From Echinostoma caproni (lineage: Eukaryota > Platyhelminthes > Trematoda > Plagiorchiida > Echinostomatidae): a stretch of DNA of 64,000 nucleotides. The stretch spans positions 51,430 through 115,429 of the forward strand of contig UZAN01039748.1 of the NCBI GenBank assembly GCA_900618425.1. Direction: 5' to 3'. Below the pieces are notes generated by a model. The model was not told the DNA's origin, searched no databases, and saw only the letters and a program-made list of their open reading frames with translations. Position 1 is the stretch's first letter. Each line of letters opens with the position of its first letter. The position numbers were made by a program, and so were the translations under genes. Shown here one piece after another: positions 26,201 through 63,779 of this stretch.

Positions 26201-29200
26201 AGAAGATCATTGATAATGAATCTTCGAAATGGCTTAATTAAACTGTGGATCTGACAAAAGATTGTGCTTAAAAAAAGATGATGGTCATTCCATACTACTC
26301 AAATGACGGTTGGGTTCAGTACAGTGCGATCTAACCTGAGGCAGTACTTTCGGGAATAGCTCAACTGACCAGCCCCTTAGTTGGTAGCTTTTATGCCACT
26401 ATATAAACCGAATAGGGTTCATTGAGTAATTATAGATAGCTTTCTTCTGGAAAACCAGAAAAAAACAGCTCTTCATCATTTCAGTAGTTGTTTGTGTTGA
26501 TAATGGTGTTGACATCACAGAAAAGTTTATTATTACTAGGAGAATCATATGTTTCACTTTTATCGCTGAGAGTATTTTTCCAAATGTGTGACCTTCTGAC
26601 AAAACAGCGCTAACAAACTACGCTTCCTTGGAATAGAATAAGCTCTTAATTTACTTTTTCTCTTAAATATTTTTTTCGTTATTAGTATTTCTCAAATTTA
26701 TCGGGCTTTGTGGAATTTTAACTTTAAAAAAAACGAATCACTTTTTTGTAGAATAAAATTTCTTGGGTCCAATCGATACACTATTCTGGAATATTCGGGT
26801 GTGGAAAAATGCTCCTCCCGGAAATCTTACCAGACACTTTGGATAGAGTAAGTAATAAGCATATGTATTTTACAAATGTACAAATGGGTTTCTTATGATT
26901 GCATCAAAAAAAAGTTTAAGATGCAAAGTTTCATAAGTTGCAATAAAAGATTTGATCCCGTCCGTTTTCCCCCTTATCACCTAAGTACCGAGAGTAACAA
27001 ATCACAAACTGACTTCTGTAATGCTAGATCATTGCAGACGGGCTCAAACTGAGTGGAATTTTTATCCTCTCGTTTACATAACCAATCACATTCCCCCGAT
27101 TCGACCGATACATTTATTTGATTATTTCTATACACTCCGTGTTCTGCTTTTATCTCTCACCTTGTGCACGACACATGTTGATTTCAATAATAGCCTCAAT
27201 AGATATAAAATGGATATCAGTGAGGATTAAAGATTTGCTATCCTCCAATTGTTATTTCAGTGTTGAATCCAATTTTGAGGGACAATCCGCAGAAACTCTG
27301 ATATTCTCTCGGAATGATTCTATTTTCTAGAATCCCAGAAAATAAAAATAACCATATGCTTAGCTGAGTAGCTTTACTGTTCTACATTGTTAAACTTAAC
27401 TTCTTACGCCTACTCACTCTAACCGGTCGTCAGTTTCACATTCTTCATATACATCCTATCTTACAATCTTTTCATAATCACACACATTGTACATAAACTT
27501 GCAGCCATACGATCCCGAACACATTTTTGCAAGCGAATCGGCCTCCCTCTATCACAACACAAACTGCCAGAAACTACTGCTCTGGGTTCGTAAACTCAAT
27601 TTCCAGATATTCTTTTCTTCATCTCTATAATATACAACTAAACTAACTTTTATTTATCTGGCAAAATTTGTATTTGAAAAAGTTTAATTTTCCTCAGCAC
27701 TGATCGTTTATGTAAAAATCAATTCGTTTATAAAAGTTAAAAGCAGGTTTGGTGATTAAAGAATACAATCGTACTTCACGCAGGTGACGCAGGTGAAATA
27801 TCATAACCACATTTATTTGTAAACTGCTGCAGCAAAAAACATCTGATAGATCTGATAGATAACATCTGATAGATAACAGCTGGAATCCCAGTGTTTTTGG
27901 ATTCGTGTTTATATTACTATCAACGTTTATAAGTAAACAAAGCACAATGAAAGAAAACCAAAGAGGTCTTTGAGACAAGATGATATTGCCATATAAATCT
28001 TTATGACCTACAAAGGGGTTGTTTATCCTGTTGCAAACTCCTCATCAATATGTCCTTTTTGTGTCCCCACCTGGATTCGAACCACGAATCTTCGGGTCGA
28101 TAGTTTAAATCTTTACCCAGAATCACAAAGCTGACGGTAAACACCTTGTACGAATGGACGAATTAATCTGGAAGTTGGATGTTTAGATCAGCCATTTTTT
28201 TTCAGGCACAAGGCACAGTTCATGATTTTAATCGGTGAACAGTAAACAGTTTCCCAAGGAGTGAAACGCACACCCAAAATCATTAACAGTGCCCGGTGCC
28301 CATGAAATTCCGAATAGGTTATTCTAAACGTTCACGTTCTACAGTAAGACTGCCCGTTTTTATACACCAGAGTAACGTTGGGAAAGCAATTTTGAAAAGT
28401 TTCTAACCTAAGTTTTCGAACTTCGGTAAAAAAAAGTTCATCGGATTGTCATATCTTGTACTCAAAGAGTGATCTATTTCCCCTTTCCCTGCCTCAGGTC
28501 ATCGCACTCGATTCGGACCTATTATTCAACGCAGATATCAGAGAATTATGGAACTATTTCGGAGAGTTTTCTTTCACTGAAGTTAGTTTCACACAAATAG
28601 AAATAATATAGTTATATTTTGTTATATAAGAGAGGTAAAGAGAGTTTCTTTTGTCCTACTGCTACCCAGATTGATACAAATTTCTATTTAAAAGGAATGT
28701 AACAACTGAGTAGAGAAAATATATTTGTAGTTTACGTAAACATATCCGGTATGCCAAATACATCACAATAAATATTACGCTGTTTATATATAAATCGGTA
28801 TTCAATCATAAAAAACGTAAACCAATGTTTCGGGAAACAAATCACACTGTGAATGTGACCGAGGCATTCCGTCCCCTGTATCGGGTTCGTGGTCGATTAT
28901 CAAGGCAGGTTCGCTGTCGTATACTAGCCACAGCGGAAGCGGTAGGAATTCGGCTGCACCACCCCCCTTTGTGTGCCCAAAAACAATTTGTGCAGGCGCT
29001 TAAGCTCCCCTGGCCCACCCCCTATACACCTCATATTCCGAGTGGTCCCAACGATCGGATGACCTAACAATCATACGATCATTGAGAATTCCATATCCGG
29101 TCCCAAGATGAACTTAGCCCCAGATAACCCATGAGGTTATTTTCCCTTTCCCGAAACATTTGTTTACGTTTTTTATGATTGAATACCGATTTATATATAA

Positions 29201-32200
29201 ACAGCGTAATATTTATTGTGATGTATTTGGCATGACTACGAATCATTGAAAACGAGCTTGTTCGCCACTCTTTGTTCTATTTGAAAATGTGCTCTGTGGG
29301 ACTGTTTAGACAATATCCGGTATGCTTCTGAGTTGTACATCGACTTCAGTTAGATGACCTTTACTTGACGTTGTGACCATTAATTAATATTATCAAAACA
29401 TCTAGCAAATCGTCAAAAGATATTAATTGAGCTCTGTTACTGACTTCTTTACCAACCCGTGTTTTATGAAGTTTACAGATAAAACATTTCGAGCAACTCT
29501 AAGGCCGCAGTGACATTCTGCGCAAAGATTTATTGTAAGATTATACAGGCATCTCGTCAGAAGTTGTTAGATGTTTCAGTGCCCAAAACAAAGCGATTTT
29601 GAGCCAACCTTAAACATATTTTTCATTTATTTGACATACCGATGTTGCAGTTGTAAGTGGACATTGAGATAAATGATGAAATTTGATGCGTTAAATAGTT
29701 CTCACTCAGTTTATCCTAAATACTTTATTGGCTAAGCAACAGATTTAAAACTCTCGCTCATGATAAATGGAGCAAGATGATTAGGGCTTTCCCAGCTTAT
29801 GAAACACAAATTTCTAATACTCAGACTTTCTGACGATAAGGTATTATAAATTTTTTAATAGATTGCGGGAGATTGAGAAATCCCCTCACTCAGCTTTCAT
29901 CTTGATCCTGTCTGATCTAAGTACGTCAAAATGCTACTACTGCTAGGTCAGATTTGTTGATTAATTGAGACATACGTTCTAGTGGGCAGTGGTGGTCAGC
30001 CGTTAAGGTATTACCTTTACAAACATTAACTGGTATTAAAATGCGATGAAAATGTTTGTGCCCATCAAGAATGAACAATCTAATGGACTAATCTAAGCTT
30101 GACACTATAACTTAAATAGTATTTTTCAAATCACGAAATATAACCATTGTTTAATAACACAATGTAGGCGGAAATGTATTCGGTGAATTCCTTTTCAAGC
30201 CTTTCCAATCACATTTATATGTAACAATTTCAATAGGATCGAACAGAAAGGTGGATGAGTCATGTGTTTGGTAATGAGCATAAAAGAACTCCAAATTTTT
30301 ACACTGTTTGGATTATGTAACCAAAAGTCGCTATGTTACGTCACAATCATGTGAACAGGCGATGTTCTCTTCCCTTAGTCAGGAGAGCTTGAGAGCTTCG
30401 ATCAGTTTTCATTGTGCGCATAGCTCAGGAAGCCTGAGTCAAATGCTAATTGCCCCTACGGTTTTTAACGTCCGAAACCGTATTGTTTTCAAGGGTTATG
30501 AAGAGACTCGATAAATGATTTTAAATGCCGAGCGCATGTTAACTAAGTGTTCCGTTTCCACGAGATGAGCGACGATTGAGCTTGACACAGCTCTACTCTC
30601 ACCCTGTGTGAGCCAGTGGGGATTGTGTTCCTTGATCCGTTGATATAACTGCCTTGTCGTTCGACCTATATCAGTTGCACCAGGGCTATTAGTTGTTTTG
30701 AACAATATCACCGTTATGTAGTTGATATTTCAGAACATACATTTTCAAGTAAGGTTCTCCTCACTGGTTAAAGTCTGTCATCTAAAGTATCTTGTGAACA
30801 GATTCGCCTTGCCGTCTGCAGGAGATAGACGACGAGGATGGGAGAAAGCTATGAAAATTTATGTACTGTCGACTCTATATTGTTTTTCAATAAAAATTTC
30901 TTTGGGGCGTCTAGTCAGATAAACATCGGAAAACGGAAGGCAATCACTCTCTTTGGGTTCGGTTATGAACTTAATTGACAAAAAAGCTGCGTCGAATTCT
31001 GACTCAACAATGGCATGATAAGTGTTCATGTTAGCCACGAAAAGATATCAATATTAGGAAGTAAATAAAAGATGAATGATAAAATATATGTTCTCTTTAT
31101 TTTGCTTCAGGCGATTGGCATGACTGTTAACCAAAGCCCGTGGTACAAAATCAAAGAAGCAATGGTTTGGCCCGCTATCGTAAGTTACAAAATAAACAAC
31201 TACCAAACGTAAACGTTGAACGCTCAAACGGGTTTTGAAATGGTTCTGTACAATGAATATTTAAAAAAATGGTTGGCGAAAATATTAGTCTATCGAAACT
31301 AAACAACAAAAATGGTCAACCATTTGTTGACTTTAACTCGACAATGATAACGCTTTCAAATGAATGAATGTTTTTGCGCGACCGATATTTTTACGTAATT
31401 CAAATCACAATTAAAACAATACAACCTTAATTTTCCCTACAGGGACAGGGATATAACACTGGTGTGATGCTATTAGACTTGAAAAAGCTACGCCAAACAG
31501 GATGGATGCAAAGATGGCGTCAAGTGGCAATGGAGGAAACGAAAAAGCATGGACATGTTTATTTGGCCGATCAGGTGAGATGAGACATTTTTCAACTCTT
31601 GATAAAAGTATTATTGTCATTGTACTCAGGTGTGAGTTCAATCAAGCAAGTAAATAGTAACCTAAGAAAACTCTTATAATGTCAAAAGCAAATGAATTTT
31701 GATAATCACCTAACCGTACAGTTAGTCCAAATCTGGGATGGTCAGAGTTGTTTGGAAGTAGTCTAATCTTGACAGAGGTCAGAACAGTTGTCGGATATTT
31801 TTGGTGACCTGGTTTATCTATGATTGTTCGATATATGTGTGCATCTTTGCCTGTGAATAAGGATTGCATTAATACATTTAGTTAGCCAGTGGGTAAATAT
31901 CAGTTTTGTAAACAATCACTACTAACTTATGGGCATCGGCCGATTGTTCTCCTTTTTACTTCTATCTCCAACAATATTATACAGATCATTCAGACACCAA
32001 CTTTCACTTAAAATTAGCATTATTTTACTCAATGGAATGCATTTCATTTATCCACCATAGTCTGCCGCGGTATCCTCATTGGTTTCCACCGCGGGTGTAT
32101 GTATGCATTGAGAAATATTCCATTTAATGATAGTTCCCCCAAGAAAAAGTTTCCGTTGTCACAAATTATACTTGTCTCCCTCTCAACTATAATCAAATGC

Positions 32201-35200
32201 GCATAAACAAAAATCATTCACATCTAGTGGACCAAACTATTTCAACCACACTCTGAGTCAAAAATTAACGAGCTCGATGAAAGGACCCTGAAATTTCTAA
32301 TCATATATGCACTGGGAGTAAAGTAGTCTGACCAGTATAACACACAACGAGAAACGACGAGTTACTCCATTCAGTTGGGTAATACGACACCTGTTCACCT
32401 GTGCGGGGTTGTCACAAACAACTGCCAAATATCCGTAATCGATGCTTGACTAAAGAAAGTAGCATAATCTTATACATAATACACTTTTTCAGACCTGATA
32501 ACTGATGTAACTTTCGGCACTCGGTAGTCTGTGCCTCGAAATTAATTGTGAAAAGGCACTTATAATGAAACAAGCCCCGAGGTTGACAAATGTGGCGTTG
32601 TTGATGCGTATATTTTAAATTTAAATCAGTATACATGTTTGACTCCATACTGAAGCAATCACCGTACAATGATTTATTTTGAATGTTTCGCTATTTTCGC
32701 GTCAGTTACTCGTTTAAACGGCAAGTTTTCTCTCAAATATAATTCTCTGAAAGGCAAAAAAATTAAACTTGTATTTATGTTACTTATAAGCATTTCGTTT
32801 TCTGGAATCTTACAAACAACACTCATTTTGAATCAAAACGTTTCTACTTCAAATTTAAAACTTTTAGCTCAAGGCCAAACAATCGATTACTAAAATCTTT
32901 AGCTTGCATTTTACAGAGAGCCAACACTTGCTGATTTTTACAAAACAGCGAATGTCATCTGTAATAAAACAACTAAAGTAACAGAAAAGGAAACTTTTAT
33001 ATATGTACGCACACCAGTTACAGTATAGCAAGGGTTGATTTAACACCAGCAGCGGCGTACCATTTCTGTTATTCTAGGCAGGTTCTCAAACTTGGTGTTT
33101 GCTTTAAGGTGTAGAAGATGCTATTTCATCCGTTTTGTTGTAGATGTCACTTTTTGTCACACTTCAGGCAATATTTGCTCGCTTGTTCACAGGACCTTAT
33201 GAATGCTGCAATTGTACGTCAGCCCTATTTGCTATACACGTTGCCGTGTGAATGGAATCTGCAAATAAACGATTGGAATGAAGCCCTCCGTTGTCCGGTT
33301 GAGCAGCCGTACACCAGACCGATCAACCTGTTCAGGTCACGTTCGAAAACGTTCAAGATAGCTCACTTGAACACAAAACGAAAATCAGAGTTTTTGGCCT
33401 CCGGCCTGAACTTTACCAGTTCCGTGAATACTGGTCATCCAGAAAGTGAGAGATTTTGATGAAAAAGCCAAGCCACTTTGGGTTGAGTTTCCTTTATTCG
33501 CGTTCAACAACAACTTTAGAACACAAACCCTTTTTGTACTTTAGTTATTTTTATTAAAAACCAAAAGACAAATCTTATTTTTATCACAATAACCTTGTTT
33601 GCAACACCGGGTAACCAATGGATAGACAGCTCTTTCAGAGCCAGTCCAATGAACAATCAGTGCTATGATTCGGTGTTTTGTAAGTGGGTTAGATGCAACT
33701 AACAGCAACAAACGTGACCTGATGGTCTTGGTAGAATATTTCATAGTAAGTAGTATGTGAATGACTGCACAAAATTTCCCAGGAAGTGTACACTTCCTGG
33801 GTACAAGTATATTAATGAACTGACAAAAGATTACTGGATACGCATGCCTGACGAGCGGCAAGTACTGCAAAACCGGTCGTGTGCTACCGGGGAAATTTTG
33901 TCCAGTCATTCACACACTAATTATTATGACAAATCTTATATTAACCTTTGTCCTCGGTGGTTCTGTGCTAAAATTGTTACAATCATTCGGGATGTAAGCG
34001 GGATTGATAAATGCATAAAGCACAAAGCGTGCTCTCAAAGAGGATTGGTTCAGGGACTGCCTTTCCCATGAGCTAAAAAGATTGATCTTGCAGTGCATTA
34101 TCAAGTTATTGAATTAACTTAGCACGATGCATTGCGTCTGCCCAACGCGAATCGTCCAGGTTTGTTTGTCTACCACTCTCCTCTTACTCCAATGTGATCC
34201 GACTCAACTGACCTTCATTGACTTATCCGTGTTAACGAATCTGGAAGCAAAAAAGTGCGAAGGCTGACCTGCGTGTCACGCCCTGATCTTGTTCGTGAGC
34301 ATTTTATGTGAGGTCATACTAATGGTTATCCAATTCAGAAAGGGAAATTCTCAAGTGAACTATGCTTCGGTTTATTTAGCCCAGTATCATAGAAATAATT
34401 CGTCAATGGCAATTTAGATATCAAACTGAGTGATTCTTCCTCGAGCCATTGCAGTTACTATATAAAAAGGGAGAATGAGTCGAAAAATCCATGAACCGAT
34501 TACCTATGCACAAACTGTGTGGACTTTAGAACATTAAATGTCACTGAGCAGATCGATGTGTGCTATATAATCTGAATATTGAAAGAATCTTTAGGTAATA
34601 ACAGGCATAAAATACGTGTACAAAGGAAACCTAAATGATGAGCAACAGGTGCTAGTACCATCTAAAATTGACCGATGAGCTTCAACAAGTTCACGATTCC
34701 CAAACTACAAAGCTTCCTACTGAAGTTCCTTCAGTAGTATGAAGTTAAATGTCAAAACAATCCGCCGCGAATGCACCTGAGAGGTTTAGTTGGATGTAGC
34801 GCCGGTCTCTCCATTAAAAATGACTTACATGAAATGGTCTAACTTAGATCTAAGTTTCATTCCTTGTGTTTCTTATGTGAAATAGTATGCAATGAAATAT
34901 TCAGTTTTACCAAATCGTCATTCATACTGCCACTGGAAGGGAAAAAATATACGGCTGCAGTTTGTGAATGCGGTAATGACAAAGCTCAACCTAAAAGCGT
35001 CACGTTCAATATCACTTCTTGTTTATCTTTTACTTACAGAAGTTCAGTGGCGCCAGTTTTATGTTAAACGATATCATATGTTCCGGGAATACGACCCACG
35101 TTGGTTGACGGACAAGCTGGCAGCGATTACATCAAGTCGCAAAGAAGTAAGCTTTCATTCATGAATTGATCTGTTAATAGTTCATCACGATTGTCATGCC

Positions 35201-38200
35201 TGCTGGCAGATTGTGTATCATAATCAAATTTCGCCATTTTCATTAGAAACTGAAACCTGTTATTGAATTTTGCACTAGTACAATGGTTTCCGAGATCTTT
35301 TTTGCTCCATTTTTCTTTCTCCTTCATACTCGAATCTCTGCCCATCGTTTGAAGAATGCATGAAATTGTTCTCTCTTAAATGGACGGTGGTTACCAGTCA
35401 TTGGCACACACACTGTCCTAAGTTTAATGATGAACCTTCACAGACACGGTGGATATGCATTGCTGTCAATTCTCAACAAGGATGAAACTGCTTCTTTTCA
35501 TCAACAGTCATTTTTATCTTTATATTTCCCACCAATGAAATAAAATTGATACTCACCCTGGTGATTGTCTTAAAAGGGTACAATGGTAAATATGTCATTA
35601 GTAAAATGACTATCAAGAATCGGAACTATTTTCAAAAGTGTGCACGGTAGTGTGTTAGACACCAAATTGTCTTAGCTCGTGAAGGGTCTACCGTTTTCAA
35701 TTTTACTAGTTTTATGCCCTTAACTCGCTTTATTTCGATAGATAAGTTAACCATCAAATGTGGAAAGGAGAAAATGGTCAGCGAAGAGGCAGTTGTGCAA
35801 CCTAAGGAAGTTAAAAGGTTTAACGGAAGTGATGGTGGCATTCATATACACCAATGTTCGATGCTATGCGTTCATCAGTGCCTTTGATTTCTGGAGGGAA
35901 TCTTCAAACGCGTGATCATAATCACCCTAAATACTTAGAAGTCAATTCAGTACATCAGATAAAAACTGTGATGTATCTATAGCGACTACATAGATCGTAT
36001 TTATAAGAATATACGGAAGACATTGCAAAGATGAAATTCACTCGCTGAACGTTTTCCTGATTTGCACAACGCTCGGCTTATGACTATTACACTGTAATTT
36101 TTACAAACATTGGGGCTTACAATTCGATTAAAACCATCACACGAACATAGTTGACGGGGGAACTGTTTACCACCGGCTTGTGATATTTCATAGTTTAAAA
36201 CGAAGTTCACATGTCTCCAGCTCTTCGTTTGTGAATAAAGTTGGAATACAGGGTAAAAGTGAGTTTCGGGAAACGTTTATGCGAGGTGGCATATCCTCAG
36301 TGTTAACGTTTTCGACTACCAACAGTTACAGTTACAGCCCGAATCCCGACAGAGGAACAAAACACAATTTTGACGAGCCTCAGAAGTTCAACTGCAGCGG
36401 TTATTGCACGAAAAAGATGCTGATGACGGCTATCTTCTTTCATTTTAAGGTTGAATCTTCAAAAATGCTTTCATTACATTTTTGAAAACATTCAACGGAT
36501 TTTCCATATCCTCCAGCAAATGCCATGAGGAATGACTCCTCAGTTAAGCAACTGGCTATGTGCGACGAAAGATATTCAAATAAAAATATTGATGAAAGGA
36601 TACCCGTTGATATCAAGTCATCATGTGGAGTGAAATAGATCGAGATTCTATCAGCCCGAGTTTCGTATATTCGTACTCCGAATTCATGATCCAATTTTCC
36701 TGCTTAGAGACTGAACGTATTCCATGGGAGGAATTTCCTTTCCAGTATACGAACCATGCACTTATTGTGAGTTAAATAATGGGGCAAGAAGAGTATTACA
36801 TAGTTCAAAGGGGAAATTCGCCGGGTATATAGAAAATGAAGCGTGAACTGAAAAGCTAAGAAGCACTGCAAGCACACGAAATAAGTATTCCGGTTTGATT
36901 TTTTCCAATCGAGTCATAACCCTGAAGGCCACTGCTAAGATGAGTAAGGTCTGTGGCCTGCAACAATCTCGCAAAGATGAGTTGTGCTTTATCGTGTAAA
37001 TGGAAAATGAAAAACGGTCTGATCAGCCGCCCGGTGGCCAAGTGGGTAGCATGCTTGCGTACTGCCCATGAGGTCCTGGATGCGGAAGTCAGTTGGATCG
37101 ATGAATCCGCGCTGCTGTTGAGACCCAACCAGGTCGAAATAGCTGTCCAGTGCTTCCTAGCTTTTCAGTTCACGCTTCATTCGCCATATACACAACCAAT
37201 TTCCCCTCTGAAATTGAATCCAATTTCCCATTACTCACATGAAGTGATACACATTTTTGTCGAGCCGTGAACAATCTGTATTTAATGAGTGAATTGAACA
37301 CCTCAGCAGATCTCGCATCATGAGCCCTCATGTCGATAACCGGAATAACCTGGGAGAACTTACGCAATTTGTGAAGTTATGCACACACAATGATCACCTA
37401 TAAGCATCAGAAACAAAAATGACGTGACTGCCCATAGACTAAATGAACTGGTAATGTAGAAGAACAAATGTCATCTTTACGACGATAATATACATCCTAT
37501 TCGTTGAATTATGTAGTAAAAGGTCTTTTAGGGACCTAACAAGTGACAATATTTTCATGAATAACAGTAGGGGAAACTATGCGAACTCGCGCAACCAAAC
37601 TGGTCAATTTCTAACCTCATCGGAATTAGCGTAACTATTTAAATCAATAAAACAAAAAGGACACCCCAGCGGAATGTATACTTAGAGATGAAACGATTTT
37701 TGGAAGCATTGTTGAATGATGTCAAGGAAATCTTTTTAGTCCATGTCTAGATCGAACCGCATTTTCATCCAGTAGTCAGCCCAAGATACTCAAATTATGC
37801 AAAATCCCACTGATTACTTCTCTGGTTTATTTTTAAATCCACGCAGACGCCCTCTACTGTGACAGCAAACTCACAATTATGTTCCCAGTTCGAAGAAGAG
37901 TCTCGTATTCAAAGACGTGTACATGCATTCTATCTGGAATACAATTTCACCGATTTCAATCAGCTGGACTCGAGAAATACGGTCACACTGATCAGCCAAA
38001 TGAGTTATCAACGGTAATTTATGTGCACTCAATGTGAATAAGCAACTTATAATTCACGTACTATTTTATCGACAAAGTGAATGGAAGCACAATCATTTAA
38101 TTTCACCTTTTCACGCTAATGCAGATAGTTACATGTGACATTTGGTATTTCAGTTTTACTTTTTCCAGGTTGACTCAAATCCAAAATAACACAGAATTGA

Positions 38201-41200
38201 ACTATTCATTATCCGCTAAATTTCGTAGAGTACCGTGCGATTAACACTTATTAGCTAATGACTATTGTTTCAACCTTGGTAATTCTGGTGAATTCTTTTC
38301 CGAACGCACACAAAACTCTTATCGGTCAATTTTTAATCGAACCCAAAGGTGATAGCCTCTGGTTTTCTTAACTTCCTCAACCACTCCACATTTTGGGATC
38401 GGTAGAGTTTGTGCTTAGGCCTATGAGTAGAATGCATCAACGAGATTTCTATTGAATACTACTTTACACCCAATCCATACAAACGACACATGATTTTAAT
38501 TCTCCAAGTGATAGAAAAAAACAAAGTAGTCTAGACAAGTACTCTTGTATTGAACTAAACTGAACTATGTACATACCCCTAGTTATTTATAAAGTTTACA
38601 CAGTTACTCAATAAACTGTAAAACTTCATTTTACTCTTGAAGCCAAAATACCTAAGTAAAAAGTTACTGCTCAAGTGAATTGGATGCAAGTCTTTTACCA
38701 CAGTTTCCATCAAATCGATTCATCATTGCATTATTTCCTTATGAGCTCTGAATAATTCTTTGCTCTCCAAGTGCAATGCAGCTCCACGGGATTTGAAGAC
38801 AAGCGATAAAATACCCGCTAAATACAAGCTGTTACAACCGCATTTTGAGCCGTTGGTATCAGACATCTGAACGCTCGGGTGTACAAAGGATATATATACA
38901 GTAGATGGGATAGATATAGAAAGGATAAGCAACATAGTTCCCGAACATATTGCTTTGTTGCCCCGATGGTAAATGTTTACTGATAGCAAACTGGATCTCT
39001 CGGTCGATCACTGCACTTGCATAGTTGAGGTATTTGTTCACTCTGGCTAATCTTCGCTTCCTCAGACAAACTATATTTTAACACCTCGTGAATTCTTACC
39101 TCAGTAATCCGGCGGTGACTTGTAACTCGTAGTCAACAATTGATAAACCCCTTATGACTACCAAACACCATTGATCCCGCTTCCTGTTCTACATCATTGC
39201 TATCTAACTGCAATGCAAAACTGTTGGCAATCAGTGAAACGTGCCTAATCAGTTTACATCATCCCGTTCTGTGCGCCCAAAACTTGTTGATGCAATCAGT
39301 TCACTTGCCGTGGAGTTGACCTCTCATTTTTAAGTGTAATAGCCCCTGTCTATACGAAGATATGTCTGTTCACTGGGACTTGCACAAAAAATGTTCTATA
39401 AATGTTGTTGCTTGTTTGACGTCAGCGAGTGAGAAGAACACACGGAATGGCAACATCTTGTGATCTATGTCTTCTTTTGGGTTTGAAGAGAAGAATGAAA
39501 AGTTCTCCGAGTTTTTAAGGCAAACTGAGTTTTTTCCTCACTCACGACAAACTGGTTGACCGTAGAGCCCTTAAAACAAACGGATTCAATTCAAAGAATC
39601 GCATTATTCTGTAACATTGTAAATTAAATCAAGAATTCAAATGAGGTCTATCCATTTTGCATTTACATTTGATCCCTTTTCTTGATTTTGCTTTCTTCGT
39701 TCGTCATTTTTCAAGGCTTCACCGTCTAGAACAACTGGTGTCCACATGGTCAGGCCCGATTAGTATTGCGCTTTACTTAACGGAACAGGAAGCCTACAAT
39801 CTTTCCATCTTTGTAGCTGAGTCGGAAATCTTATCGCGACGACGAAACATCGGTTACCATGTCATGTTTGTTGAAGGAGTGAGTCATTTGTTTCACACTC
39901 AATTGATCGTGTGCATGTGTGCATAGTCCCGTGCATTGTCTTACTCGCACAGTGATTTTCACTTTAAATCTCTAATGCGTTTCCAATTAGAATCAAATTC
40001 ATCCATTACAGCTAAACTTTTAAATGAAGTTAAGAGCCCGGGGGAGAACTCAATTTTTGTCTTCAAACGACAGAAATTTTTAAACCGGATCATTCTCTTC
40101 TGTTATTCCTTGGGTGGGAAACCTCACTCAAACACTGTAGTGAAATTCTGATTCTACTGGTTACATAATGTGAATACCAGGACGGATGTTAATGAAAACA
40201 GGAAAACCGACATTTGAATCACAATCAAAAATGCATACACAAAGCTTAATGTTTTATGCATTATGCACGACGATAAATTACCTGCATGTAGCCAAGCAAA
40301 CGGATGGACAGGCAGGATTGTTTGATCTGTATTTATTGAAAACAATGAATGAGTCAGTAAGTTATAAGTGGTTAACACATAAATCAGTAGCATATCAGAA
40401 TCATAGCCTTTATGAAGGTTCATGAGTGAACTGTGTGGCGAAAATCACTAGGCCTGAGATACATTTGCCTTTAGTATAAAACACATAAAATAATATGCTA
40501 TAGTTGAAAATATCATATCAGAGTTTAACAGCACAACTGAGACAATTTATCGTTCTTAATTATTCATCACTCTTGATCAAGTTTTTCTTCCTCCTACCCC
40601 GGACAAATGCGATAAGAATAAATAAATGACGAATTTCGTCTCCCTTCAAAGTGATCGGGACAACCACTGCCTGATTGTATTTCAATATAATATCTAGAAA
40701 ACTTTGTTTTGTTTTGCTTTCCATTTTACGTAGTTTTATCATATATATATATATATGTGTATATATGAACTTCTACAAAACAATTTTTGAAGGAGGCAAA
40801 CTGGAATCTGTAATTTTGATCAGCTATAGTGGGAGCTGAGTTCCACACTGATAATCCATGCATCTTTGGCGCGAGCAATCTGGAGTTGAACTCCCGAATG
40901 GTCTGCTAGATAAACACGATGGATGAACCCTAAAAAACTTGAGCTTGTAGTACTCAATGAATGTTTAGCTAGGTAACTAGCAGAGGATTTTACATGACCG
41001 GGTAATCACAAACCATCCCACTTTGTTTTCGCTCAAACTAATGGCCCCAGTCGCTACCAGTGATCACTGTGTTCTCCTCTTAAGACCAGAGATATACTCC
41101 CGCTCTGCATATCCAACATTCATACGATCAAACCAGATAAGGTTTCATCTCCGTAACTTTTCATCAACCCGCATTTCTCTTCTTTGTCGTTCCATAACGG

Positions 41201-60440: not shown

Positions 60441-63390
60441 CGATTCAATAAAGTGTATTGTATACGGAGACCAATATTCTCGTTTCCAGTCCTCCAGGTT
60501 TTGTGTCACTGTGCCTTTCGTATGAGTGTCAAGACGCAGTAAATGTACCGTTTGCCTGCAGGAAAAATTCCCCCCTCCCGGTACCAATTGCGATAATACC
60601 GAGTGAAGGGGATTTTTTCTCAATATGTTAGGGTCAGTAGCATCTAAAGCACAAAACTGTTTTTGAACGATTGTATGGCTAACTCAAGTAGAATGAAGTA
60701 CAACAGACTAATCGGGATTGTTTAAGAGAAAAAATGGGATCATGTCACAACTTCAGCAGGGATAATAGTTCAGATGTGGAGAAAAGAAAGCAAAGAGCAC
60801 ATCGAATAATAACTTAAGCCTTAAGCTGACTAGGAAGTAGCGATAAGCATGCAGTTTGGTATTTATTAAGTGGCGTCTCCATCTGGGTACTAAGACATTA
60901 AGTTAATGTTTCAACAAGCTTTCTTCGTAGACAAAGAGAACTTTGAAACCTTTCTTATATACGTCTGAGTAACACAGACACTCAAAACCAAGGAATATTT
61001 CGAGCAGTTTCTCTGAAGTGGCATGCGAGATCACCAACCAAACCTCAAAATTGTGATGTGAATATGATGAAACCATTTTTGTAAATCATTTCTCAAGATA
61101 TTTTCATCTTTTCTTAACTTTAAACCCATTGCTACCATTTAGCTCAAAACGACCTGAAAAATTGAGTGACAGTCGTTTCATTGAACATGGACTAATATAT
61201 ATATATACTATACAACTAGCATCATTGTGCTACTCGTGAGTAAGTTGTTTGTATGTTGAAAATCACATCAGCATCCCGTTAGTCACCACAATTATTTTCA
61301 ACTCAGTTAATGGATAAATGAGAAAAAGAAAACAAATAATGGAACGAATTTCAATCATTGTATGGGATTATTATTTCATTTAATCACAATAATCCACGTC
61401 ACAATTCACTCAAAAATATGACGCGGCATTGCATTGGCATTGCATATCTAAAATTTGTTGTGGTTAGAATAAATCTTTCCAGAGACATCGATTGATACTG
61501 AACAACACGATAAACCTGTGGTATTAATTTTGCTTCATTTTCAGTCAAAATAACTGCTTGCAATCCCTTATCTGGTATGTGGATAAATCCAATTACTTTG
61601 TTCTTTTTCCTGTTTTTTTATTCACATTTCGCTTCATGGTCTCCATTTCAGATATTCTCACTGAATGAACGGAAAGTAACCTATCTCAAATAGATCACTG
61701 AACGCCAACAGCATTTTGCCGTCATTCGAAATTTACAATTTATTCGGATGACCATGGATGATCGTTCGATCGTCGGTCACTTTCGACCAAAAACACGATG
61801 CAGCTCATCAATGACAATCTGAAAAGCAAACAGCATGCTAGATTCAAGCATATTTGTCCGGTCGAATCGGCTATTTACATAATATACACATAAATCTAGG
61901 CAACCGAAAGAATGTTTTCGCTACCGACCATTCGTTTAACCCGAAATCCTGGAGCACTATAAGACACCTAGCCCTTAGTAAATATCATTGATGATCATGA
62001 CCATTACTGCAAAGTTCTCCAAAGTGAATTTGCAAAATTATTGCTGCTTAAATTCTAAAAACAGAGTCCAAAGACTTTAAACTCAATTCCGATCATTCCG
62101 AATTGGTATGAGGTACTGAAAGAGCTTTTCATTTAATAATAGAATTGGCTGTCTAGTCTACCTGAAGTAATCTGTTAGCAAGATGAAACGAAGTTGGCAG
62201 AATGTTGCTACCACAGTTTGCGAATGTACCGACCTCTCTGAGTACAAAACTTGGAACACCATTAATTTTGCAATGCTGGACCTCACTCACGTAAAGAATT
62301 ATTGCTTTTTTTAGCTATCATCATCGGCTCAGGAGAAATCAAACTTTTGGCAGTGATTGAAAGAGACATTTAAACTGTTCTGGCGCTGTGAAAACTCATA
62401 GCTGCTGTTGATACTACTAGGGAACTAGTAGTCGCAACATCATGACTAAAATTACTGGATTGATGCTCAAGTATAGATGAATTAAAATGGTCCCCATAAA
62501 GTGCACAGTGTTGTGTCTGGATACATGCTTTCGCTATCCGTGAAAGAATCAATTTCCTCATCTATTTTTACATCTGCAGCGCACATAGCTGAAGACCGAT
62601 ACAAGGCTATGGATCAGCGGAGCATTATCATGCTCTGTGAGATTTTGAGTCAGTTTTCTCAGAGGTTATTCCGTTATTAATAAATGGAAACCAAAAGGCC
62701 TTTCCTGGGAATCAATATCCATTTTCCCATGTAGCATATACCAACAATAGAACACATTCGCTGATCCATACAGAACAATAAGTCAGCGTCGCCCTTCGCG
62801 TATACAACCAAGTCCTATCCCTGATCTGAACGATGACATTTGGTAAATGACTACCTAAAAATATAGTTTTTGTAACGCCCGGTTTAAGTAACGCTGGCAG
62901 TAACCATATACTTTCTGGTTCCTAGTTGTATGCGATTACGGCTACCTAGTAAATTTGGTGGACTGTTTACTCTGTTAAGTAGATTTAAGACATCATTCAT
63001 GTTGCCCAGAAGGACTGAAATGACGTTTTTCATCTATTCTTTATTAAATATCCAATGGCTTTTTAAGCTGTTATTCAACTGTTTGCTTTGAAGGTGCTCT
63101 CCTTATTTGCGGATTATAGGCAATAGGCAAATGATAAATAGGTTACCTTTCTATTTTACGCTTCATTTGCTCTGTGCACGACGACATTCACTTTATGGGA
63201 CATATATGAAACTTAATGTCCAAAGGTATTGTCCTTCGGCCATTATATCAAGTGGTACTCCAAGTCTTACGTATATCAAATTCTCTCCTGAGCTCCGGGC
63301 AAAGTTCATAATAGCCATCCTCTGCCCATACTGATTCAACGAAAGAAAGATGAATTGCTTCATCAGTCCAAATCCTTCGCTTTAGATCTT
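60441..63390. other. Intergenic, no gene recognised
   Basis: AT-rich sequence with a short AT run near 61.2 kb. No open frame with recognisable motifs was found. Confidence 0.55.
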
Positions 63391-63579
63391 TTGTTGTGCA
63401 GCGGTACTGTGCTATACATTGGACACACGACCAGGCGATTATCAAAACGTATTGCTGTGCACTGATCTACGACCCTTAACAAAGGAGCGGTTAGGAGTAT
63501 TCCCAGCTAGGTTCCCTGTCATCTTATTAATAACGGGCATGTTGTGAGCAAATCAGATGCATCCAAAATCAGAAATATG
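63391..63579 (+). pseudogene. Penelope-like element GIY-YIG endonuclease relic
   Basis: One frame reads LLCSGTVLYIGHTTRRLSKR, IAVH, stop, then STTLNKGAVRSI and CHLINNGHVVSKSDASKI. This matches the PLE endonuclease core (C..YIGHT.R.LSKRI.EH, V..HL...GH.V...) with YIG intact. Two in-frame stops inactivate it. The IYRV and LPWP segments expected downstream are not recognisable. Confidence 0.7.
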
Positions 63580-63779
63580 ATACAGGAATAAGGAGGCATC
63601 ATTTAACTACTTATAAGACGATTGCTACTCATAATTTCAATCCTTAACTATGCAGGCAAAAGAAGCTAATCCAGACACTGTTGTTACCCTGACCTGAACC
63701 GCAGACCGGTAACCCATTTTCCCCAAACCAGCCCATACCCAGCATTATTCACCACAATCTTAACAACCGATTGTTTTCA

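What the first reader, a model, noticed from the sequence alone, without database searches (positions are those of the whole stretch)
28742..29325. Foldback element that encloses a Penelope endonuclease tail between near-perfect 87-bp inverted repeats
The arms differ at one position in 87, and the open PLE-derived frame begins exactly at the inner edge of the left arm. Either a non-autonomous element captured PLE sequence, or this is a PLE copy with an inverted terminal structure, as described for Penelope elements with repeats in mixed orientation. The frame is undamaged while the other PLE relics here are decayed, which suggests a young element.
Basis: partly seen in the sequence, partly recalled or inferred. 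Interest (0 to 1): 0.75.

Follow-up and report, generated by a model that had tools for sequence, protein, structure and literature searches.

The report
Two-ended insertion of a Penelope retroelement
The palindrome is a shortened copy of a Penelope-type jumping gene whose two ends were apparently each copied from its RNA by a different cut DNA strand, and its sister copies in the same genome give clues to how these poorly understood elements insert.

Summary
The inverted repeat is real: arms 28751-28837 and 29147-29233, 86 of 87 positions complementary. It is not a foldback transposon. The right arm is ordinary 3'UTR of a Penelope-like element (PLE). The left arm is an extra inverted piece of that UTR, joined to a 5'-truncated PLE copy. 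A 13-bp target duplication, ATATCCGGTATGC (28742-28754, 29313-29325), encloses the whole unit, so it is one insertion.

Of 57 distinct loci of this family examined, 21 have the same head-to-head form with both outer ends readable. In 18 of 21, one end carries a ~27-bp 'tail' and the other stops ~27 bp short. In 3 of 21, the window copy among them, the second arm starts further in. None of the 21 has two tails or two tail-less ends.

Best explanation: both nicked target strands primed reverse transcription of PLE RNA at different start sites, and the two cDNAs joined head to head. This fits published in-vitro work on an anole PLE. In 7 of 21 copies the arm lengths exclude self-priming, an older proposal. 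Rare variants are shared between the arms of one insertion more often than on re-pairing. A new member of a known kind; the pairing rule makes PLE integration testable.

The parts
28742..28754 (.). left target-site duplication ATATCCGGTATGC; its last 4 bases (ATGC) are also the first 4 of the inverted arm
   Evidence: exact 13-bp match to 29313-29325; 9 bp or more in 10 of 2520 mismatched boundary pairs
28751..28837 (-). inverted arm: PLE 3'UTR, el 583 back to 497 (el = window minus 28650)
28834..28837 (.). GAAA shared by the inner end of the inverted arm and the start of the direct arm
   Evidence: 4-nt overlap; junction overlap in the family only weakly above chance
28834..29312 (+). direct arm: 5'-truncated PLE 3' end, el 184 to 662
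   Evidence: 98.5% identical to L011 over 28834-29314
28834..29067 (+). last 77 codons of the PLE ORF and its stop, downstream of the GIY-YIG motif
   Evidence: tblastn 98.7% over 77 residues; frame listed
29147..29233 (+). right arm of the palindrome: the normal 3'UTR piece of the direct arm, el 497-583
29288..29312 (+). 'tail', el 638-662: present at one outer end of each of the 21 two-armed copies with both ends readable; tail-less ends stop near el 637 (window 29287)
29313..29325 (.). right target-site duplication ATATCCGGTATGC

Best explanation
This is a single, 5'-truncated insertion of a Penelope-like element in a fluke-like genome, made by target-primed reverse transcription from both target strands. 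Inferred steps: (1) the PLE enzyme cut the two target strands about 13 bp apart; (2) one 3' end primed at the distal start site of the PLE RNA (el about 662-664) and copied back to el 184 in the 3' part of the ORF; (3) the other 3' end, ...ATGC, primed on PLE RNA at el 583, where 4 bases match, and copied to el 497; (4) the two antisense cDNAs were joined head to head at GAAA; (5) gap filling duplicated the 13 bp. In 18 of 21 two-armed copies the second strand instead started near a fixed second site about 27 nt further in (el about 637). Shown: the anatomy, the TSD, the one-tail pairing in this sample. Inferred: strand order, enzyme dimer, joining step.
For: 13-bp TSD round the whole unit. 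12 of 18 two-armed copies with an outer exact repeat of 9 bp or more, against 10 of 2520 mismatched boundary pairs; two of three more with 12 bp, the third 8 bp. 18 of 21 two-armed copies are tail/tail-less, 3 of 21 tail/internal start, 0 concordant; P(0 of 18) 4.6e-7 with single-arm frequencies 22:11, 3.8e-6 at even odds. Inner junctions differ from copy to copy, so the form is not inherited from one master. In vitro, an anole PLE cuts and extends both strands and starts RT at two adjacent RNA sites, and its authors equate the tail with the stretch between them (PMC11167929, parts 1-2 of 4).
Against: L025 has no TSD and L052 and L064 only 7 bp. Inner-junction microhomology is only weakly above simulation (10 of 18 with 2 nt or more against 30%, p 0.02; 3 nt or more p 0.09). 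Resolved one-armed copies with TSD exist (L044, L047, L057, L059), so the second arm is not obligatory. The window copy starts its second arm at el 583, not at the usual site, and taken alone would also allow self-priming. No reads, no empty site.
Confidence: 0.84

Rival explanations
1. Self-priming or snap-back: the strand folds back at its truncated end and copies itself outward, making the inverted arm without a second priming event. Self-priming, on an antisense template, was proposed for PLEs in 2013.
For: Proposed in PMC3846280 (passages). In the window copy the short arm lies inside the long one and starts at a 4-base match. Arms share minor alleles more than re-paired arms do, which copying one arm from the other also predicts.
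Against: In 7 of 21 two-armed copies (L009, L013, L025, L042, L051, L062, L063) the tail arm is the shorter one and the other arm reaches further in, so neither could have templated the other; in L013 and L063 the long arm holds an assembly gap, and L025 has no TSD. It gives no reason for one end stopping about 27 bp short.
Confidence: 0.09
2. Foldback or MITE-like DNA element that captured a PLE fragment and moves with the arms as terminal inverted repeats.
For: Near-perfect inverted arms with a TSD outside.
Against: The arm sequence is PLE 3'UTR; 33 of 57 loci show one arm only, though 12 of the 33 have an unreadable 5' end. Arm ends and enclosed segment differ from copy to copy, and copies end beyond the arm at el 637 or 664.
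Confidence: 0.02
3. Assembly artefact: a false inverted join of two reads or copies.
For: Draft assembly of 12689 contigs. In 12 of 33 apparently one-armed loci the 5' end is lost in N or at a contig end, so the assembler had trouble at such places.
Against: 21 loci with differing junctions, mostly with TSDs; no N near the window copy. A false join would not produce TSDs or the one-tail pattern.
Confidence: 0.03

Closest known systems
PAc (Poseidon of Anolis carolinensis), in-vitro PLE system, PMC11167929 (parts 1-2 of 4 read, further passages)
   Same: Two adjacent RT start sites, a 'tail' between them, cutting and extension of both strands, AT-rich targets
   Different: The paper reports no difference in start site between strands and calls later steps not yet validated. 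Here the two ends of one insertion use different starts in 21 of 21 copies. No hammerhead was found by Rfam inside the copies scanned (7 loci).
Penelope families of Adineta vaga, PMC3846280 (passages)
   Same: Inverted UTR copies (pLTRs), 8-10 bp TSDs, a 31-bp tail optional on one of the inverted pLTRs, head-to-head arrangement
   Different: Those are larger elements with direct pLTRs, and self-priming was proposed. Here copies are short, 5'-truncated, and 7 of 21 exclude self-priming.
L1 twin priming
   Same: Both target strands prime on element RNA; 5' inversion inside one TSD
   Different: In L1 the inverted part is usually upstream RNA that does not overlap the direct part; here both arms copy the same 3' end

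Membership tests
Penelope-like element with endonuclease | ORF with GIY-YIG endonuclease region | tested here: met
   77 window residues at 98.7% to the end of the L011 ORF; that ORF holds TYIGR..., read by eye; one relative is named GIY-YIG domain-containing protein. Pfam on the window pieces gave no PLE family; the Pfam scan of L011 did not run.
Penelope-like element with endonuclease | telomerase-like reverse transcriptase in the same ORF | tested here: inconclusive
   PLE-like RT stretch in L014, read by eye, with stops; no family scan ran
Penelope-like element with endonuclease | inverted UTR/pLTR arms with short variable TSD | tested here: met
Penelope-like element with endonuclease | optional 30-40 bp tail at one end | tested here: met
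   about 27 bp
Penelope-like element with endonuclease | direct tandem pseudo-LTRs in full-length copies | not tested
   no full-length copy recovered; further genome searches did not complete
Penelope-like element with endonuclease | hammerhead ribozyme in the pLTR (common in PLEs, not defining) | tested here: not met
   no Rfam match with E up to 1 inside the PLE copies of 7 loci
Foldback / MITE DNA transposon | constant terminal inverted repeats that bound the copies | tested here: not met
   arm ends differ from copy to copy; 33 of 57 loci show one arm
Self-primed (snap-back) insertion | one arm lies wholly within the other | tested here: not met
   violated in 7 of 21; met by the window copy taken alone

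The most novel reading that the evidence does not exclude
PLE integration is a paired reaction on ONE RNA molecule: two enzyme units load at the two start sites about 27 nt apart on the same RNA, each takes one nicked target strand, and they copy it one behind the other. Because both cannot sit on one site, a two-armed insertion has exactly one tail, and its arms carry the same rare variants. The window copy is a case where the second strand primed further in, at a 4-base match.
Probability: 0.33. Interest if true: 0.62.

Novelty: new member of a known kind. Interest (0 to 1): 0.42.

Why it matters
How PLEs, a third class of eukaryotic retroelements related to telomerase, finish integration is open; the 2024 PAc paper calls those steps yet to be validated. 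Truncated two-armed copies are frozen products of priming on both strands. They show two start sites used in one event, argue against self-priming in 7 of 21 copies, and give a simple test for any PLE family with enough copies: one tail per insertion, and shared variants between arms.

Tried and rejected
Foldback/MITE reading: rejected, see rivals. Snap-back of the first cDNA: an early idea, consistent with the window copy, contradicted by 7 of 21 copies.

A prediction of mine that failed: tail-less one-armed copies should hide a short inverted tail arm at their 5' end (note). L015 and L044 have the TSD directly at the 5' end and L043 after 6 extra nt, with no such arm.

Inner-junction microhomology as a main argument: dropped, since simulation gives 30% with 2 nt or more by chance. 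RNA structure of the UTR: folds no better than shuffles (z 0.32, 117 of 200 shuffles at least as stable). Hammerhead in the element: no match inside the copies of 7 loci (one match lies in L023 outside its PLE copy). Tail as the start of the next ORF copy (ATG at el 638 reads MCSVGLFRQ): left open.

Full report
OBSERVATION. The inverted repeat is present as described: arms 28751-28837 and 29147-29233, 87 nt, one mismatch, 309 nt between them. The genome has 426.5 Mb in 12689 contigs. Of 20 related proteins listed (E up to 1e-10), the named eukaryotic ones are from flukes: Echinostoma caproni (88% over 45% of the query), Paragonimus westermani (67% over 82%), Fasciola hepatica (54% over 64%). 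The host is most likely a digenean fluke; no tool named it.

WHAT THE ARM IS. The left-arm stretch has 41 listed genome matches (379 candidates, 40 scored), the UTR end 46 (1355 candidates, 40 scored). I compared 57 distinct loci (L001 and L009-L064; L002-L008 are other views of loci in this set and were left out) with one real copy, L011, in coordinates el = window minus 28650 (my notes used minus 28649, off by one). The right arm of the window (el 497-583) is normal 3'UTR, which in these copies continues to el about 637 or 664. The left arm is an extra inverted piece (el 583 to 497) joined to el 184 with 4 bases, GAAA, in common. The frame inside is the last 77 codons of the PLE ORF, beyond the GIY-YIG motif.

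FAMILY ANATOMY. Of 57 loci, 21 hold a two-armed, head-to-head copy with both outer ends seen: L001 (the window), L009, L013, L021, L025, L026, L028, L035, L036, L039, L042, L045, L049-L052, L060-L064. Three are two-armed with one outer end lost to N or a contig end (L010, L012, L019). Thirty-three show one arm, 22 with tail and 11 without; in 12 of the 33 the 5' end is in N or at a contig end. Of the 21, L021, L062 and L063 were completed by fetching adjacent DNA, and all three closed as one tail plus one tail-less end. An automated scan found 18 outward-facing pairs, 17 tail/tail-less and 1 tail/tail. I dropped two: the tail/tail pair (S021, the extended L021) links two separate insertions, the true partner of the older one (el 482-636, 86%) being too diverged for the anchor; the L018 pair is a young copy inside an older one. 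With S021 and L025, which the anchor missed, added from the alignment map, 18 of 21 are tail/tail-less. The other 3 of 21 (window, L009, L036) have a tail and a start at el 583, 595 or 588. Zero concordant of 18 has probability 4.6e-7 at the single-arm frequencies and 3.8e-6 at even odds. If the 3 internal starts are counted as concordant, it is 1.2e-4 and 7.4e-4. On 9 copies from the loci of the neutral query (one of them, L021, lying beside the hit) it is 6.8e-4 and 2e-3. The query ends at the tail, so its 40 scored hits have at least one tail; a tail/tail pair would not have been missed for that reason.

ONE EVENT. Outer exact repeats of 9 bp or more occur in 12 of 18 two-armed copies, against 10 of 2520 mismatched boundary pairs, and in 8 of 27 boundaries then treated as single (six of these 27 belong to two-armed loci or their neighbours). 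Of the three completed later, two have 12 bp and one 8 bp. L028 has 13 bp displaced by 19 extra nt; L035 and L061 have 8 bp, L052 and L064 7 bp, L025 none. The L049 repeat includes element bases, because its contig ends 6 bp after the arm. Of the 20 repeats listed for two-armed copies, 15 begin with A and 9 end in TT. Some of these bases may belong to the element, but the pattern fits T-ended primers on both strands. In the window the left primer end is ATGC and matches the RNA at el 580-583. I read this as the reason for the inner start; it is an inference.

MECHANISM. Two cDNAs, one from each target strand, explain overlapping arms of either relative length, varying junctions, a TSD round the whole unit and the two outer start points. 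Self-priming needs one arm to lie within the other. This fails in 7 of 21 (L009, L013, L025, L042, L051, L062, L063), with an assembly gap inside the long arm of L013 and L063, and no TSD for L025. The window copy alone cannot tell the two models apart. Inner-junction overlaps are weakly above a simulated null (10 of 18 with 2 nt or more against 30%, p 0.02; 3 or more p 0.09; 4 or more p 0.16), and three junctions carry 5, 5 and 16 extra nt.

ONE RNA OR TWO. At 82 variable sites the two arms of one insertion carried the same minor allele in 16 cases and differed in 43 (0.27), against a mean of 0.03 when arms were re-paired between loci, 0 of 2000 reaching it. Without CpG-like sites it was 8 and 23, again 0 of 2000 (21 pairs, L010 included, the old S021 left out). 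Against a single RNA: in only 2 of 19 pairs with enough overlap (L062, L063) are the arms closer to each other than either is to any other sampled copy. In the rest the UTR is too uniform or mutation after insertion too large, and L028 (18 of 141) and L051 (14 of 160) differ much. Shared alleles fit one RNA, two RNAs from one source copy, or self-copying. Two enzymes on one RNA would also need the first cDNA to be displaced; the tail arm reaches further in 13 of 21, the other arm in 7, and in L049 they are equal. With the absence of equal end types, one RNA with two enzymes is the simplest bold reading; it is not proven.

COMPARISON. PMC11167929 (parts 1-2 of 4 read, further passages): both strands cut and extended, RT starting at two adjacent internal sites, tail = stretch between them, predicted dimer, no start-site difference between strands, later steps not validated. 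PMC3846280 (passages): inverted pLTRs, 8-10 bp TSDs, tail optional on one inverted pLTR, self-priming proposed. So the object and the tail are known. This survey adds the pairing count, the case against self-priming and the allele test. Searches listed no paper that by title or abstract start states the pairing rule or a one-RNA model; the listed papers other than those named were not opened (PMC12910113: passages only, nothing on this). Subscription papers are mostly not held; the original Drosophila virilis Penelope papers are recalled only.

LIMITS. One family, one draft genome, best-scoring copies only; no full-length copy, reads or empty site. Twenty further genome-search requests did not complete, so the sample could not be enlarged.

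Noticed in passing
window 37109-37153 (+): Type I hammerhead ribozyme, 37.4 bits, above Rfam's gathering score of 34. A weaker hammerhead HH9 match lies at 33830-33901 (28.6 bits, gathering 52).
   Followed up: no
window 30385-30717 (-), 39218-39322 (+), 63373-63731 (+): Other, diverged PLE endonuclease relics at 37-49% amino-acid identity to L011.
   Followed up: partly
L028, right of the tail end: 19 nt of unknown origin between the tail and a 13-bp TSD.
   Followed up: no
L037 647-1933: About 1.3 kb inserted into a PLE copy, with el -111 to -103 (9 bp) present on both sides, like a TSD of a nested insertion.
   Followed up: partly
L042 4522-4914: An older relative with the same form: arm ending at el 664 (65% identity) and inverted arm ending at el 633 (81%).
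   Followed up: partly
window 29288 onward (el 638): The tail begins with ATG and reads MCSVGLFRQ in L011; it may be the start of the next ORF copy, as reported for other PLEs.
   Followed up: partly
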